This document shows positions 24,812 through 61,143 of a stretch of 64,000 bases of DNA, piece by piece. Numbering within the stretch: position 1 is the first letter of the stretch; every line of letters begins with the position of its first letter. The notes under the pieces are model-generated. The model did no database searches. It was not told the origin of the DNA and saw only the letters and a program-made list of their open reading frames with translations. The stretch is from assembly GCF_000203815.1 (NCBI RefSeq), contig NW_004457729.1, forward strand, positions 868,674-932,673, in the 5' to 3' direction. Position numbers and translations under genes: made by a program. Source of the DNA: Cavenderia fasciculata (taxonomy: Eukaryota; Evosea; Eumycetozoa; Acytosteliales; Cavenderiaceae).

Positions 24812-27740
24812 TTATAAATGTCCTCCACCACCATTGAAAAATATTGGAGGTGAATCATCGTTTTGATTATTATTATTATTATTGTGTTGATCATTATAAT
24901 GTTGTTTATCTGGTTGATCATTTCCATTTCCATTTCCATTTTCTTTTTCTTTTTCTTGTTGATTGGTGGATGTACTAGTACAACCATTGTCGACTGATGG
25001 TCTATGTACGAATAAACCCATATCACCTTTTCCTTTAACATCTATAACTTGTTTTTCGAAATCATATTTATCAGATACTAGGTTATAGGTGGTTTCACTG
25101 ACACTAACCCTATCAGGGATACCAAGTGATTCCATTCTACTCGCTAAATTAACTGCATCACCCCATAAATCAAAGGTGAACTTCTTTTTTCCTATTACTC
25201 CTATTACAACATCACCAGTATTTATTCCAACTCTTAAATGAAGGTCATAGCCATATTTTTGATTTACCCTAAAATTTAAATTAAATATTAATATTTATAT
25301 TCTCTAATGTATATATTTACAACCAACTGTTTCTATTATCTATTTTCTTACCTTTTAACACTTTCTAAAATATTTAAAGCAAAATTTAAAGCTTTGTTTG
25401 CATGATATACAGTTCGATCCCTCAGATAGAAATTGATTCCATCACTACTATTACTTTTTCTCATGTCTGGTGAAAAGCCTTCCACTTCGTGCCATGGAAG
25501 TCCGCAAACCACCATGTAGGAATCGCCAATTGTTTTGATTTTCTCCAAGCCCATCGATTCAGAGATATCGTCAAATGTCGAGTATAAACGATTCAACATC
25601 AATACCAAATCCTTGGGGGAATAGGTAGATGAAATCTTTGTGAAATTAACAATGTCTGCAAATATAATCGATACTCCTGAACATTCTTCTGCTACATATA
25701 ATTCTCCTTCTTTCATTTTGTTACTTATTGCTATAATTTAATATTTTAAAAGAAGAAAGTTAAGTTATGGATTAATAATTCAAGGAATGATCTATTTGAT
25801 CTAAAAGTTGGACATACGGATTGGTAAAATTGAATTTAATAATACATCTGATTTCTTTCTTTCAATATCCAATTCAGAAGCCAAAAGAATTAATTTATCT
25901 CTTATTCTTTGATTGGCAAATGAAGTGACTCCAATGATGAGAAAACAGGTAAATAGCGATAGAATGGAAACGGTTAGAGCAATGCTATCCTTGTCGTCGG
26001 CTATAATGAGTCCCTTGTCTACAAATGTGTAGCTGACTGACAACATGCCAACATAATGCATTCCACATACACCCAATCCCATAAACAATCCAGACACTAG
26101 ATGCTGAAGATGTGAAAAGGAGAATGTGGCAATGTTGAGAGACACTATTGATGATATCCATGCAATGATAAACGAGAGAAACACCAGTCCTCTGTTATAA
26201 GACATCATTGCATTCATTTGCATACCGGCCATACCCAAATAATGCATACTAAAAATACCACATGATGTAAAGAAACTTGCCAATATCAACCGTATCACTA
26301 CATTTTGGTTGTATTGTGATGGGTCCAACATCGATGACATTCGTTTCTGTGATTTTAATTCTCGTTTGAGTGTGTTGTTGTCATTGTTGTCATCTAGTTC
26401 AAACAAAGAACTTCCAATCAAAGGCGAGTATTTCCCACTCTGACTATCTTTTCTTTGCTGTTGTTGTTTAATGTCAATGAGCTCATTTATATTTACAATG
26501 TGTTGAATATCACTTTGACTTAATGGTATAATTCCTTTTTTTGGTATCTTTTTCTTATTATTTCCATTATTACCATTATTATTATTATTATTATGATTGT
26601 TATTATTATGATTATTGTTATTATGATTGTTATTATTATTGTTGTTGTTATGATTATTACCATTATTATGATTATTATTATTATTATTATTATTATGATC
26701 ATTTAAATTAATATTATTCAAATTACATTCAAACAATGGTGAGGATGAATGAAAGGGTGAATTACTATTACTATTACTACTACTATTACTATTGCTATTG
26801 GCAGTGTCACCAGACACTAACCGTCTATTGATAATTGGTGAGCTCGTGATCGATGTCGATTGATGATTCAACATTGTCATCTCTATGCAATATGATTGAT
26901 GATCTGACTGTAGTACCGTATTACCATCCAATGAAAATACATTGCCTATTTGTTGTTGTTGTTGACAGTGTTGTTGATGATTATGATCCATATCAATGAT
27001 CATTGATTCCTCTATAGTATTGTATTGTTTTGATTTTCTTCGATTGAGGTAATTCACAATGACTTGTGGTATCTCGACCGTCAACAATAGTAATCCCAAT
27101 CGACATGATAACACTGCCACTGCACCCGAAAGAAAAGTTAACCATTTATCATATGAAACAGGTACATTAAAATGACATGCCATCATTCCAATGAAATGCA
27201 TACTCCTAAAAAATGAAACAAATCCAAAATTAATATTTATATTTATATATTTGTAACAAAGTATGTATGTATTTAATAGTTTCATACCAAATAGTAACAC
27301 CACCAAGTGAAACTGAACCAATTGTTAGGAAAAGTTGTCTAAATATTTTGTTGCTGGTACTTGTCAATTGAGCAAGACATTGGAGTGATGTATAGGACCC
27401 GAGAACTGAGACCAAGTAGGATAACACGATTAATTCTTTAGACCAATATGTGTTGATCTCCATCACTCCTCCTCCAGACCCATCAGCGCTGTCTATTGAA
27501 GGTGTTGCCAAAAAAAAGTCGCCACCGGAAGAAATACTACTATCCATCGTACTAGTATCGATTTGAATTTGGCTAGCATGTTCAAAAACAACAAAAGAAG
27601 GCAGGGAATATGATTTTGTTTGATCTATTATTACCTCCTCTGCCAATCCTCTTGTTGCTACTGTTACTGAAAATGATGAACCGCTTGAAGGTGGCAAAAA
27701 TGATAATAGAATTATTATTAAACCTAATTCCATTGTAATC

Positions 27741-27742
<2 letters not shown>
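24812..27742 (-). CDS. MHYT-domain membrane sensor fused to class III adenylyl cyclase
   Basis: Minus exons are 27742..27288, 27205..25818, 25730..25352 and 25268..24812, giving 892 residues. A signal-peptide-like start leads to a luminal stretch and then multiple helices. Three MHYT motifs occur at residues 154 (MHFIGM, rebuilt by the first splice), 472 (MHYLGM) and 534 (MHYVGM). Asn/Ser/Gln-rich sequence (about 200-440) is inserted between the first and second. The linker LLNSILPPISNKMKEGE is the usual lead-in to class III cyclases. Cyclase residues: metal Asp640 (FADIVNFT) and Asp684 (KTIGDSYM); purine-selecting Lys680 and Asp774 (FDLWGDAV), the ATP-type pair; transition-state Asn781 and Arg785 (VNLASR). 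It should therefore make cAMP as a homodimer. MHYT units are proposed to sense O2, CO or NO through bound copper; this is known from bacterial GGDEF/EAL proteins. The C-terminal tail is low complexity. Confidence 0.9.
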
Positions 27743-44875: not shown

Positions 44876-47168
44876 TTATTGACGGGCATGGTGCTTGAGC
44901 ATCTCTAACGTCTCTAGGATGTTTTCGAGTCCGTGATTGCCGTCTCCTCCAGCAGCAGAGGCAAACACAGAGTTTTTAAAGGGTTGTTGGTTCTTGATGG
45001 GTGTGTTGTCGTCTGACATGTCTTGATCATCGTCATCATCCGAGTTGATGATGCTGTGGATTTGTGACTTGACATTGGTGGTGGTGGTGGCGACGGTAGC
45101 AGTGGCAGTGGATAGACCGCCACTTGAAACAACAAGATTGGGGTGGATGTGAGAAAAGGCAGAAGAGGAGAGAGCCTTGACATAGATGGGTGAGCCCGTC
45201 TCGTCTTCCTTTTCGAGACAACCGGTGATTCTAATCTTGACGGGACGGAGACATTCTTCACGTTCGGCCATCAACTTGTCAAACTTGTCCTTTTCCTCCT
45301 TGGGGATATCGGTACCGTGTTGGTAGGTGATGATCTTGATGACCTTGTCAATCTTTCTCAAGTAACGGTATGGCCATTTACGACGAGTGCATTCCTTGAA
45401 ACGCTTGCACAACATTGACTCTGAAATACCAAGACGTGAAGCTGCCTCCTTTTGTGGAAGTACCAACAGTTCGGTAATATCAATATAGTTTGGATCATTG
45501 TTTGATGGTTGTTGTTGTTGTTGTTGTGATGGAGTAGTTGTTTCTGATAAAGAGTGTTGTAATGAGACTGATGGTTGTTGTGGAGATGGGGAGGAGGAAG
45601 AGGACGAGTTCATTTCATCGTTACTAGCCATCAATGAAAAGGATGAGGTACTTTGAGAGGCACCTGATGAACTCATTGGAGAGAGTGAGGCAAGATGGAT
45701 GGGTTGTGATGGTGATGAAGGTGACGAGGTGTGGTCGTTGCCGCCGTCAGATAGATCAGAAGAGTTGTCTTGGTCGTCCTTTTTACGCTTGTTGTTGGTA
45801 TTGTTTCTAGAGAGGACGTGGAACGAGCTTGAGGTGACCGACGATACTTCTTGGTTGGCACGACCGTCGTTAAACACCTCACACAAGGCAAAGACAAGGC
45901 AGAAGGATTGGTGGAGATGCTTGGAGCTGACTTCACTGACCTTGAGCTTGTTAAAGACGACGAGACCGGTGCGATCGACCATCAACGACTTGATGCCCTG
46001 GAGTACCTCTTGTTTGCCATCCGATTGCTTGGCACTGACTTGCTTGTAGGTAGAGTTGTAAACCAAAGATACCTGGACAACCAATGCGCTGCCAACAGTA
46101 CGATTGTTGATCAACTCTTGGTCAACCATCAATGTTGGTGATGGATGAATATATCTATGGCATACTACTGAATCTGATGGTTGATGTTGAATAGTTAATC
46201 TAAAAAGAAAAAAAAGAAAAGAAAAAAGAAATTAGAATATGTAAAAGATTAAGATTTGATTTGATTTTAACATACTTGTCTCTTGGAGTTAATAAACGGT
46301 GGTTATGGTATTCAACTTGATGGTCATCTGAACTATGGTCTTCAATAATCATATTGGTGGCAGTGGTGACAGTTGGTGATGCAGCAACAGAGGCAGTTGA
46401 GGATGATGGCGATGAAGAGGAGGAGGAGGGGGAAGAGGTAGAGTGTTGAGTAAAGTTTTTGATATTGTCAAGTAGGATGGATTCTCTTCTCTTGAGGTCA
46501 ACCAACTCTTGCATCCATTGATAGATTTGTTGCTTGTTGTTTGGTGAAGGTGACAATGATTGATGTTGTTGTTGGCTATTATCAACGACGACTGGAAGAG
46601 AGGGTGATGAACATGGCGAAGAATCGTGGCTCTTGAAGATAAAAGATGGTGAAGCAGATGATGACAATGGCGATGGTTTGGTACCGGTGGACGTGGTAGT
46701 AGACAATCGTGACTCAAATTGTTTAAAGGTTGGTAAAGAGTGGTCATTGTCAGAGTCGCTGTCATCGTCAATTAAACATTCCGATTGAACGGGATTCAAA
46801 ATATTTAATAATTGTCCATTGTATCCATCTTGTTGTTGTTGTTGTAATTGATCCTTATTGATGTTGGCGATAATCGGTAAATAGCTTTGGTATGGGTTAT
46901 TAAGTAACAATGAGGATGATGATGGTGATGAAGAGGATGATGATAATTCGATTCTTTGCTTTTTGATAATATGATTAGTAGTGCTTGCGTTGTTATTATT
47001 ATTATTGTTATTATTGTTGATTGGCACTGGAGAAGATGAAGGTGAAGTAGATTGATAGCCTATAGATATTGTTGTTGTTGATGTTGGTGGAGCCGCAAGT
47101 AATATACTATTTATGTTGTATGATGGCTTAAAGTTGGGTATCGATATGGGTTGAGATATCTTTTGCAT
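44876..47168 (-). CDS. RWP-RK domain transcription factor with upstream conserved domain
   Basis: Minus exons are 47168..46276 and 46199..44876, giving 738 residues. The RWP-RK domain is at about 538-582: ITELLVLPQKEAASRLGISE, a Cys-Lys-Arg helix, then RRKWPYRYLRKID, close to the RWPxRK signature. Residues 298-412 form a second ordered region (TIQHQPSDSVVCHRYIHPSP, a VQVSLVYNSTYKQV strand, FCLVFALCEVF) with alternating hydrophobic pattern; it may be a beta-sandwich DNA-binding domain of the CudA/STAT-like kind known in dictyostelid development, but this is tentative. The flanks are Ser/Gln/Asn/Asp low complexity. RWP-RK factors control nitrogen response and gamete fate in plants; roles in amoebae are little known. 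The protein should be nuclear. Confidence 0.82.
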
Positions 47169-57000: not shown

Positions 57001-60000
57001 ACATCATCAACATCATCGTTATCAGCGTCATTTGGCGCCATGTTATCAACTACACCAAGCGCAGTCGCATTTTCACTCCCTCATCATCATCATACTCCTC
57101 AACCATCAACCTCAGCGCATAGTGGAATTAGAGGCTCAACCTCTTTAATGCCACCTCCATCATCATCAACAACATCAACATCATTATTGTCGTCGTCACT
57201 AAAGACGTCGACTTCATCTTTTATGCCACCACCATCATCTCCACTCAAATCCTCCTCATCGACATCTTTTTCCAATCCCAATAACCACAACAGTATGAGT
57301 AGCAACGGTTTTAGACTTCCGGTCGAAGACAATCCCGATGTATATTACGAGTTTCTAACCAAACCAGAGGCCATTATCAGCCACGTCTCGATGAAGCGAC
57401 TAAGTGAACTCCATCTTGCCCATAAAACTTTACAATCCATTCCAACTACTATTATCAATACTTTAAATTATCTAAAGGTAAGATAAGAAAGAGAGATAAT
57501 AATCAAATCAAAACAAAACAAACTATTCAATTTTACTTACTTATTTCTATTTCTATTTTAGGTATTAGACTTTTCATATAATGCATTACAAGATCATTCA
57601 TCATTAGAGTCAGTATCAACATTGTATGGATTGGAATCACTCAATTTATCATATAATGCATTATCAGACATACCAGCTTCACTTAGTCGACTGGAAAAAC
57701 TCACCAAACTCAACCTCAGTAACAACAATTTTGTAAATATTCCAACCTGTATCTTTCAACTCTTTTCGTTGGAGAAGCTCAACATGTCGGGCAACGTCAT
57801 CGTGTCCATCCCCGAGTCGATCCAGCACCTGTACAAGTCGCTTGCGCATCTCGACCTGCGCAACAACAAGATCACCAAGCTGCCCAAAGAGGTTGGGCTC
57901 TTGGCCAAGCTGCACACTTTGGACGTGTCGGGCTACAACAAGATTGTTGAGTTGCCCGCCTACCTCGCTACGTTGCCCATGCTCGAGAAACTCGAGTTCC
58001 CCGACAGCGTCAAGGTGCCACCTCGCTCGGTCACCTCCAAGGGCTTTAGTCATATCATGGGTCACCTGCGTGACATGATTGACGGTACCGTCCAACTGAC
58101 CGACGTCAAGCTCATCTTTCTCGGCCCGGAAAAGAGTGGCAAGACACAGTTGGTGCGTTCACTCACCAAGTCGTCGTCCAACAAGACCATCAAGATGGGT
58201 AGCATGCGTCGTCACAGCGGGTCAGTCTCGATATCATCGGCTGGCACGACTATTATAAATCCGCGTCTTGATACGCCGCAGTTGGGTGAGTCGGTCGAGC
58301 AGACCGAATGGAAGATCGAGCTGCCCGTCAGCCAGCAACAGCAGCAACAGCCACAACAGACGTTGTCCGTGCCCGTCCAGACTATGCCTGACGCGTCTCC
58401 CAAGACAATGCGCAGCTCCAAGTTGTCCAAACGTGCGGTCAAGTTGATGGCACTCGACTTTAAGTTTATCGGTAGTGCTGTCTACACGAGTACGCATTCG
58501 TTCTTTTTGTCAGAGCGTGCATTCTATTTGATCACGGTTGATATTACCAAAGAGCCGCTGTCACAGCTTGACCTGTGGGTCAACTCGGTCAAGGCCAAGG
58601 CGCCGACGGCACCCATCTACATTGTCGCCACCCACATTGACCACTATGCCGGCGACATTATGAAGGCACTACATCAGATCGAAGGGTTCCTCAACGAACG
58701 TATGCTTGAGGTGACAGGTGTCATTGGAGTCGCCACCAACACGTCGCGCAATATTGACCTCTTGCGCCAAGAGATCATCACGACGCTGGCCAACCAATGC
58801 AACCACTGGTTCTCAGAGCAGACGCCCGCCGTTTACGTACAGCTCGAGAAGCAGCTCGAGGAGGAAGCACGTCGTCGCTCACCGCCCGTCATTGCATGGG
58901 ACGAGTATGTAAATATCGCCAAATTGGCCAACATCACGACACACGAGAAGCTGGTGCGTGCAACCAACACCCTACATCGATGGGGGTCGATCATGTGGTT
59001 TGACGAGGAGAAGCACGGGCTCAACGACCTGGTCATCCTGTCGCCGCAGTGGTTGAGCGACTGCTTTGCCGCCATTGTCATGTCGAAAAACACGCATATC
59101 CAATCCGACTCAATCCTGTCGCTCAAAAAGCTACACCACATTTGGAAGGACCCTGCGATCCCCGGCTTCCTCCACATGAAACTCATCCGTATGCTTGAGC
59201 GTTTCAACATCCTCTTTACACTCAAGAGCAACGGCCAAAACACGTCACTGCAGGATTTGTCGCTGCCATTGTCCGAGGCCAACCGGTCCGTGTCGTCGCC
59301 GCTCCCCACTCTGTCACCTGAGCCCGTTCTCACATCCAGTTCGTTCATTTCAACGTCGTCTACGTCCTCGTTTATGACGTCGATTGTCAATAGCTCGCCG
59401 TCGATGTTGCGCAGCTCCATGAAGCTGCTCAAGCCGGCCACCACCGCCGCTGCAGCCGCCGCGGGCATGTCGTCGGGCGGCAGCTCAGCCAGCACGTCGG
59501 GCAACATCTCGTCATCGTCATCACATGAAAACATTGCGCAGTTTATCCAGGGCACCAAGATCATCGTCCCCTGTCTACTGCCAGCTGCCAAACCATCACA
59601 TCTTGCATCCATGTGGGACACTTGGGGTGGCGAAGACATGCACCAAGTCGGTCGTTACTACACCTTCCTCAACGCTCCCAAGAGTTGTTTTGACCGTCTC
59701 ATGGTTCGTTTCCTCTACACCATGGAACCAATCGTCTACTATGGTTCGGGTATTCTCTTCCGTAAACCTCAAAACATGAAAGACTCGGTCAAGAGTAGTA
59801 TGTCGTCTTGCGGAACACTCGTCGAGTTTGATCACCAAGCTCAACAAATCCAAGTGCGTGTGCGTGGTCACGACTACGAGTCCACGTCCAAGATGTTCCA
59901 GCTCGTGCTCGAAAATGTCGACACTCTTCTCAAGGATCTCGGCATCACACCCTCCAAGACACTGGTGACATGCTCGTGTTCGTTGGATTGCCAGCTCGAC

Positions 60001-61143
60001 AAGCAGACACCCACCTACCCCATTGAAATGGTTGAGTCTGCCTTTGGCAAGGGTGAGGCCTACATCAAGTGCCCCAAGTCGCAAAAGCTCGTGTCGATCG
60101 AGACGCTCTCGCCAGATATTGCCCTCGCATGTCCGTCGACCACCAAGATTGGCACTGAGGAGCTGGCCGGTTTTGTCGAGATTGGCCACGGCGCGTCAGC
60201 CAAGGTGTTTAGAGCGACCCTGCGTGGCGCACAAACCGTCGCCGTCAAGCAGTTTAGTTTGGACCGTATGGACTTGCCCGACGCACACCCTTTGGTCGGC
60301 GGGTCAGGCTCACCCACTCCCAACTCATCGGGACACCACTTTACCCGTGCACCATCCAGCAGCTCGCTATCATCGGCATCATCAGCCGACGAAGCCAACC
60401 AGTTGCAAGGCAAGCTGACAGCCATCAACGAGTTTAGAAGAGAGGTTTGGCTCATGTCAGATCTCGTTCACCAAAATATTGTTCACATGAAGGGATACAG
60501 TTTGGACCCTTACTCGATCGTCATGGAGTATATGGATCTCGGATCATTGTCATCGTATCTCCGTCAAAAGCGAGAGTTGGGCGAGACACTACCATGGGAA
60601 ATTATCCTCAAGATTGCCAAAGACATTGCCAAGGGCATGGCCTTTTTACACAACATTTCACCTCCACTTGTACATAGAGACCTCAAGTCGCCAAACATCT
60701 TGTTGGCCACCACTCCCACCGAACCATTCATCGTTGCCAAGATATCAGACTTTGGCCTCTCTAGAACGGTCGTCCAAAGTTTTGTTTCAAAGGTTGTCGA
60801 CAATCCAACGTGGCTCGCCCCCGAGGTGATCAGCCAACGAGAATACAACGAAAAGGGAGATATTTACAGTTTGGGTATCATCCTCTGGGAGTTGTACCAC
60901 ATGCAGCTACCATTTGAAGAGTTTGGCATTAAATTTATGTCTACCCTCGAAGACAGTATCATCTCTGGTCTCCGTCCAACCATCAACCCTCAATGCAACG
61001 CAATGTATTCTTCATTGATTACAAAATGTTGGAATGAAAACCCTCAATCCCGTCCTTCTTTCCCTACCATTGTCAAGGCTTTAGAAGAAATTCATGATAA
61101 CATCAAGAAAACTTCTTCTTCTTCTTCTTTACAAAATAAATAA
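54061..61143 (+). CDS. Roco-family protein kinase with two DEP domains
   Basis: Exons 54061..54096, 54154..54375, 55713..56129, 56620..57477 and 57562..61143, all phase 0, give 1704 residues. Order: a DEP domain split by a 1337-nt intron (ETCFVGREAVSWLIDHHKEF ... KQ joined to GFISYVD ... HHFKDDGSFYAF), Asn/Ser linker, second DEP (CFSGQQIIDWLSENLCISRK), leucine-rich repeats from about 512, Roc GTPase with P-loop GPEKSGKT (699-706) and G4 THID, COR, and a kinase domain with GHGASAKVF (1386), Lys1407, HRD (1549-1551), DFG (1574-1576) and APE. This is the LRRK2 type of architecture; dictyostelid Roco kinases act in development and chemotaxis. Oddities: a Gln/Ser insertion in Roc after the P-loop, DFKFIG where a DxxGQ motif is expected, and a Ser-rich insertion between the catalytic Lys and helix C. 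Nothing follows the kinase. The precise roco number is not assigned. Confidence 0.92.
54376..55712 (+). other. Exceptionally long intron in Roco gene
   Basis: 1337 nt from GTAAGA to AAAG, at least tenfold longer than most introns here. It contains promoter-like features: TATAAA near 55273, (TATC)n near 55214-55229, (AG)n near 55249-55262, and CA-rich leader-like sequence after it. The intron is required to keep the first DEP domain whole. No nested gene is evident. Confidence 0.6.

What the first reader, a model, noticed from the sequence alone, without database searches (positions are those of the whole stretch)
24812..27742. MHYT gas-sensor module fused to an ATP-type class III cyclase in a social amoeba
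Three MHYT motifs (residues 154, 472, 534) in a multi-helix membrane region are joined to a complete cyclase domain. Metal Asp640/Asp684, ATP-selecting Lys680/Asp774 and Asn781/Arg785 are all present, so it should be an active adenylyl cyclase. MHYT domains are best known from bacterial GGDEF/EAL proteins, and the known dictyostelid adenylyl cyclases (ACA, ACR, ACG) have other sensors. It would couple O2, NO, CO or copper to cAMP, the aggregation and spore signal. I cannot say how widely this fusion has been reported in other amoebae.
Basis: partly seen in the sequence, partly recalled or inferred. Interest (0 to 1): 0.8.

Follow-up and report, generated by a model that had tools for sequence, protein, structure and literature searches.

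The report
MHYT-sensor adenylyl cyclase in social amoeba
This amoeba gene joins a membrane sensor known mainly from bacteria, thought to feel gases such as oxygen or carbon monoxide through copper, to an enzyme that makes the signal molecule cAMP, so it is a good candidate for a gas-controlled switch of amoeba development, although nothing here tests that.

Summary
Removing three short GT-AG introns on the minus strand gives one 892-residue protein. Pfam finds three MHYT repeats (PF03707, E 1.8e-34) and one class III cyclase domain (PF00211, E 3.2e-53). All three Met-His-Tyr/Phe motifs are kept, at the ends of the second, fourth and sixth helices, as reported for the copper-dependent CO sensor CoxC. 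The MHYT exon also encodes the cyclase's linker helix, so the halves are very probably one gene. The host is very probably Dictyostelium (Cavenderia) fasciculatum: 13 GGDEF matches, the gene number reported for that species. It is the only MHYT gene found in that genome and a sixth cyclase beside loci that I read as ACA, ACG, ACR, GCA and sGC. I found no bacterial MHYT plus class III cyclase protein among the listed matches in 811 genomes (lists cut short). None of the paper listings I checked pointed to this fusion. Gas sensing and cyclase activity are inferred. New variant of a known kind.

The parts
27288..27742 (-). Exon 1: hydrophobic N terminus (likely signal peptide), about 80-residue stretch, TM1, TM2 of the MHYT domain up to residue 151
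27206..27287 (-). Intron 1 (82 nt, GTATGA...TTTTAG); splits the codon just before motif 1
25818..27205 (-). Exon 2: MHF154 motif, TM3, 255-residue Asn-rich loop, TM4 with MHY472, TM5, TM6 with MHY534, TM7, and the cyclase linker helix ERKKSDVLLNSILP
   Evidence: PF03707 in-genome matches at window 26092-26262 and 27079-27204
26305..27069 (-). Low-complexity Asn/Gln/Ser-rich loop between MHYT repeats 1 and 2 (residues 198-452, 64 Asn), edges set by eye, inside exon 2
25731..25817 (-). Intron 2 (87 nt, GTATGT...TTATAG) between linker helix and cyclase core; retention would give a stop after LPIRMSNF
25352..25730 (-). Exon 3: first half of class III cyclase domain with D640, K680, D684 and an insert of about 25 residues
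25269..25351 (-). Intron 3 (83 nt, GTAAGA...TTTTAG)
24812..25268 (-). Exon 4: second half of cyclase domain with D774, N781, R785, then Asn/Gln-rich tail and stop

Best explanation
The gene encodes a single-polypeptide receptor adenylyl cyclase. Shown by sequence: a membrane domain with seven hydrophobic helices and all three MHYT-family Met-His-Tyr/Phe motifs, followed by a cyclase-type linker helix and one complete class III catalytic domain with ATP-type residues, in one predicted spliced gene of a dictyostelid. Inferred: the N terminus is outside, the three motifs lie together at the outer membrane face and bind copper, the catalytic domains pair as a homodimer in the cytosol, and binding or loss of a diatomic gas (O2 or CO most likely) at the copper site shifts TM7 and the linker helix and so changes cAMP output. 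That cAMP would act through PKA in stress or developmental decisions of a group 1 dictyostelid.
For: PF03707 and PF00211 both far above cut-off in one spliced protein. All six named catalytic residues present. The own protein keeps 17 of 20 columns invariant in 23 bacterial MHYT rows, and every Met, His and Tyr/Phe of the three motifs. Seven hydrophobic segments behind a leader, motifs at the ends of TM2, TM4 and TM6; CoxC is described with the same layout and shows copper-dependent CO sensing with O2 as antagonist (passages of PMC11347149). The linker LLNSILP resembles that of other class III cyclases and is coded upstream of intron 2, in the MHYT exon; phmmer against AC9 aligns across that junction from query residue 14, the junction being at query residue 31. 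Five other cyclase genes are separate loci.
Against: No transcript, protein or assay data. No solved structure with a sequence match to the MHYT domain was found (0 matches at E up to 1), so the copper site geometry is unknown. CoxC is the one experimental proof named in the passages read. The own MHYT branch is long (2.76); it departs from the bacterial consensus in 11 of 47 columns conserved at 75% or more and carries a 255-residue insert, so its ligand could differ. Loop charges do not settle the topology: the long loop has 20 K+R and 20 D+E. The cyclase domain carries an insert of about 25 residues, largely absent from the other 24 rows of the alignment.
Confidence: 0.6

Rival explanations
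1. A real MHYT-cyclase fusion in which MHYT is not a gas sensor but a copper, redox or lipid-state sensor, or only a dimerising membrane anchor, with control through the Asn-rich loop or by cytosolic partners.
For: Bacterial cyclases found here carry other membrane modules such as MASE7 in the same place; the 255-residue insert is a large potential interaction site; the copper and CO proof is for CoxC.
Against: All motif Met/His/Tyr residues are kept, which a mere anchor would not need.
Confidence: 0.28
2. The catalytic domain is inactive or makes mainly cGMP.
For: Insert of about 25 residues in the catalytic core.
Against: Metal, ATP-selecting and transition-state residues all present; best solved matches are adenylyl cyclases.
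Confidence: 0.07
3. Two neighbouring genes wrongly joined: an MHYT protein and a soluble cyclase.
For: Exon 2 has its own stop just past the splice site; no RNA data.
Against: The MHYT exon continues into the cyclase linker ERKKSDVLLNSILP and the splice restores the aligned stretch; the first Met of the exon 3 frame is residue 620, so a separate cyclase would lack its linker helix.
Confidence: 0.04
4. Bacterial contamination in the assembly.
For: MHYT is mostly bacterial.
Against: Three predicted GT-AG introns, Asn-rich tracts, a 4.2 Mb contig and eukaryotic neighbours such as WASH subunit 7, PI3K and a Roco kinase.
Confidence: 0.01

Closest known systems
CoxC of Afipia carboxidovorans (MHYT-LytTR), PMC11347149, passages read
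   Same: Seven-helix MHYT domain, motifs at the ends of TM2, TM4, TM6, N-terminal to a cytosolic effector
   Different: Effector is a DNA-binding LytTR domain; bacterial; motifs evenly spaced at 57, 118 and 180, without the long insert
MHYT-GGDEF and MHYT-GGDEF-EAL proteins (MucR, NbdA, DgcW, CdgB as named in passages of PMC11347149; L025 and L075 here; L052 with a degenerate GGDEF-like domain, by eye)
   Same: MHYT ahead of a nucleotide cyclase-type output
   Different: Output is c-di-GMP turnover; here a class III cAMP-type cyclase
Dictyostelid ACG and ACR
   Same: Receptor-type adenylyl cyclases with one cyclase domain that feed PKA (PMC4399386 passages)
   Different: ACG has a CHASE sensor, ACR a histidine-kinase-like and receiver region; no MHYT is mentioned for either
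Bacterial class III cyclases with MASE7 or other membrane modules (L066, L068; L013)
   Same: Membrane module, linker helix, one class III catalytic domain
   Different: Membrane module is not MHYT
Fungal MHYT proteins: a histidine kinase in Taphrina (PMC4007546) and an Aspergillus 'MHYT domain signaling protein' (PMC3576715), passages read
   Same: MHYT in a eukaryote; horizontal transfer is suggested for Taphrina
   Different: Kinase effector in Taphrina; fungi

Membership tests
MHYT domain (PF03707) | Profile match over the curated cut-off | tested here: met
   118 bits against 21, three stretches
MHYT domain (PF03707) | Three motifs with conserved Met, His and Tyr (Phe in repeat 1) | tested here: met
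   M154/H155/F156, M472/H473/Y474, M534/H535/Y536
MHYT domain (PF03707) | Seven transmembrane helices | tested here: met
   Hydropathy (seven hydrophobic segments behind a leader); helix ends set by eye; no topology program and no structure
MHYT domain (PF03707) | Motifs near the outer membrane face | tested here: inconclusive
   Follows if the N terminus is outside; loop charges do not settle it
MHYT domain (PF03707) | Copper binding and gas response | not testable with these tools
   Shown for CoxC (PMC11347149 passages)
Class III nucleotidyl cyclase (PF00211) | Two metal Asp, transition-state Asn and Arg | tested here: met
   D640, D684, N781, R785
Adenylyl (not guanylyl) cyclase | Lys and Asp pair that selects ATP (recalled rule) | tested here: met
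   K680, D774; product not measured
Class III nucleotidyl cyclase (PF00211) | Catalytic activity | not testable with these tools
   No assay
ACA, ACG, ACR, GCA or sGC (known dictyostelid cyclases) | Is the window gene one of these five? | tested here: not met
   The genome has five other cyclase loci; ACR and sGC named by domain content, ACA, GCA and ACG by my reading of residues and layout (no CHASE hit in the two ACG-locus frames scanned)

The most novel reading that the evidence does not exclude
A copper-based oxygen (or CO) receptor adenylyl cyclase, built by joining a bacterial-type MHYT sensor to a cAMP cyclase in group 1 dictyostelids, which tells submerged or hypoxic amoebas to encyst or to hold back fruiting through cAMP and PKA. 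It would be a eukaryotic gas-to-cAMP receptor unlike haem-based soluble guanylyl cyclase, and it would put a direct O2 input on the cAMP pathway in a lineage whose known O2 sensing runs through the Skp1 prolyl hydroxylase (recalled).
Probability: 0.2. Interest if true: 0.8.

Novelty: new variant of a known kind. Interest (0 to 1): 0.6.

Why it matters
Both halves are known families, but I found their fusion neither among the listed bacterial matches nor in the paper listings checked. It gives a compact test of whether MHYT senses gas in a eukaryote, with cAMP as an easy readout. It adds a sixth cyclase with a possible environmental sensor to a dictyostelid in which cAMP governs post-aggregative development and, in the group 2 species P. 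pallidum, encystation. The passage read in PMC4758236 gives D. discoideum (group 4, no encystation) only five cyclases.

Tried and rejected
Bacterial donors of the whole fusion: the genome-contig scan gave 30 loci. A cyclase-domain comparison with their open frames found none with a cyclase domain (best E 0.71); only the plasmid protein L013, without MHYT motifs, matched. In that file L023 and L042 were cut wrongly to 19 and 16 residues, so 28 of 30 were really tested; the MHYT frame in the L023 genome is 297 residues.

Whole-genome searches with the joined query: 398, 198, 116 and 99 genomes, 811 in all, from the phyla of a Cellvibrionaceae, a Streptosporangium, a Chlamydiae and a Granulicella genome. 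None of the listed rows proved to span both domains, and I saw no MHYT row next to a cyclase row in one frame. All four outputs say that more matches were not listed, and only some candidates per genome were scored (three in many genomes, seven), so this is not proof of absence. Near candidates were opened: L052 is MHYT with a degenerate GGDEF-like domain by eye, L066 and L068 are MASE7 cyclases, L067 has a cyclase and no MHYT family hit, L074 has no MHYT motif, L075 is MHYT-GGDEF-EAL by eye. Other long rows of the lists were not opened. Spirochaetes, cyanobacteria and other phyla were not searched whole, and no eukaryotic collection is held, so other dictyostelids could not be searched.

Plasmids by tblastn: 376 records matched and 2 had a place covering 80% or more of the query. 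The best, Rhizobium etli L013, is a cyclase without MHYT motifs; the other was not opened. Viral contigs: no stretch matched any pattern. NCBIfam: one hit, T2SS_HK, 82.5 bits against a cut-off of 450, so not a member. A translation of exon 2 in the wrong frame was of no use.

Cyclase-domain tree: unresolved, own domain on an open fork. MHYT tree: own domain on a side (fork 96/95) with 13 bacterial rows, 11 of them frames of 336 residues or less, but on a long branch; weak evidence for a stand-alone MHYT donor. For the MHYT alignment and tree, 7 of 30 loci were dropped beforehand (L020, L023, L042, L043 by name; L026, L033, L034 by a length or motif filter).

Papers: MHYT was searched with adenylyl cyclase, Dictyostelium, cyclase plus Acanthamoeba, eukaryot (70 hits, 40 listed), guanylate cyclase, nitric oxide plus copper, class III plus cAMP, and amoeb. 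Judged by titles and abstract starts, none listed was about a dictyostelid or a class III fusion; of them only PMC11347149, PMC3576715 and PMC4007546 were opened, for passages. The text searches of PMC4758236 (Physarum) and PMC4053784 (Acanthamoeba) found 0 occurrences of MHYT. The spelling 'adenylate cyclase' was not paired with MHYT, and supplements could not be read. Whether D. fasciculatum encysts was not settled (listing only).

Full report
What is there. On the minus strand of the window, 27742 to 24812, three AT-rich GT-AG introns of 82, 87 and 83 nt separate four exons that encode 892 residues. Pfam finds three MHYT stretches (PF03707, E 1.8e-34) and one Guanylate_cyc domain at 628-827 (PF00211, E 3.2e-53). 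Metal aspartates D640 and D684, ATP-type K680 and D774, and N781 and R785 are present.

One gene, not two. Intron 2 is the only break between the MHYT part and the cyclase core. The exon before it carries not only MHYT repeats 2 and 3 but also the linker helix ERKKSDVLLNSILP. A linker of this kind stands before other class III cores, for example SEQLLRSILP in L044, and the phmmer alignment to mammalian AC9 runs across the splice. Splicing joins LNSILPI to PISNKMKEG in frame. Unspliced, the exon 2 frame stops four residues after the arginine at the donor site. I have no RNA data, so the introns are predicted; 60 combinations keep the frame and homology chooses among them. Third-position GC is 0.28, against 0.48 in the neighbouring TPP-enzyme frame; I draw nothing from this.

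Membrane part. Hydropathy gives a leader and seven hydrophobic segments. With a cleaved leader the N-terminal stretch (2 K+R, 10 D+E) would be outside and the motifs at the outer ends of TM2, TM4 and TM6; helix ends were set by eye and loop charges do not prove it. The passages read in PMC11347149 give the same layout for CoxC, where the MHYT domain senses CO, copper is needed, and O2 competes. Against 23 bacterial MHYT rows, 20 columns are invariant and the own protein keeps 17; the three departures are Ala to Ser, Ser and Gly. Of 47 columns conserved at 75% or more it keeps 36. Between repeats 1 and 2 lies a 255-residue loop with 64 Asn, 20 K+R and 20 D+E, cytosolic in this topology. Such Asn-rich tracts are usual in dictyostelids (recalled).

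Host. The window lies on contig C5 (4.17 Mb) of a 31.0 Mb genome in 21 contigs. Nearby frames encode a TPP enzyme, WASH complex subunit 7, a PI3K and a Roco kinase. The genome gives 13 GGDEF matches (matches, two of them partial, not annotated genes); 13 dgcA genes are reported for the group 1 species D. fasciculatum in the passage read in PMC10559540. I take the host as D. fasciculatum (now Cavenderia; recalled).

Other cyclases. PF00211 matches ten places in six genes. Besides this gene: a locus with HATPase and receiver domains (ACR), one with two cyclase stretches and an AAA domain (sGC), two loci with paired cyclase domains that I read as ACA and GCA from their residues, and one with a single cyclase domain that I read as ACG (no CHASE hit in the frames scanned). 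D. discoideum has five cyclases by the passage of PMC4758236, so this one is additional. MHYT matches nowhere else in the genome at E 0.001.

Origin. I looked for the same fusion in bacteria and did not find it: 28 of 30 loci truly tested and the listed rows of 811 genomes of four phyla. The lists were cut, and other phyla and eukaryotes were out of reach. The passages of PMC11347149 list HK, GGDEF, EAL, PAS and DNA-binding partners, and bacteria and several fungi as holders. The MHYT tree places the own domain on a side with 13 bacterial rows, 11 of them short frames, fork 96/95, on a long branch; the cyclase tree is unresolved. A separate gain of MHYT and its joining to an existing cyclase is therefore possible, but not shown.

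Likely working. Class III enzymes with one catalytic unit per chain work as homodimers (established; recalled). The simplest model is a dimer whose outer copper site changes state with O2 or CO and passes this through TM7 and the linker helix to the cyclase. Only group 4 dictyostelids aggregate with cAMP; groups 1-3 use it after aggregation, and many can encyst (passages of PMC5055082 and PMC8067170). In P. pallidum ACR and ACG drive encystation through PKA (passages of PMC4399386, and PMC8067170). Starved cells encyst in darkness, at high osmolarity or when submerged, so a low-oxygen signal is a reasonable guess. Whether D. fasciculatum itself encysts was not settled.

Verdict. A real, intact-looking gene with a domain pairing that I did not find elsewhere; mechanism inferred from one bacterial precedent; testable with ordinary assays.

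Noticed in passing
window 57562-61143, + strand: A long frame with LRR, Roc, COR-A, COR-B and protein kinase domains (Roco kinase) in the most GC-rich part of the window (58-60 kb, GC 0.54).
   Followed up: partly
window 44876-46231, - strand: A Ser/Gln-rich frame with a near-cut-off RWP-RK match (28.4 bits, cut-off 29.3), in a stretch of about 6 kb with strong GC skew.
   Followed up: partly
G000 contigs C3, C4, C7: Several of the 13 GGDEF matches lie in close pairs, and one (C3:2296921) holds an internal TAA.
   Followed up: no
L036 and L041: Two Chlamydiae MAGs encode MHYT proteins with a histidine-kinase-like C terminus (by eye); some Chlamydiae live in amoebae (recalled).
   Followed up: partly
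window 25731-25817: Retention of intron 2 would give an MHYT protein that ends just after the linker helix, a possible cyclase-free form.
   Followed up: no
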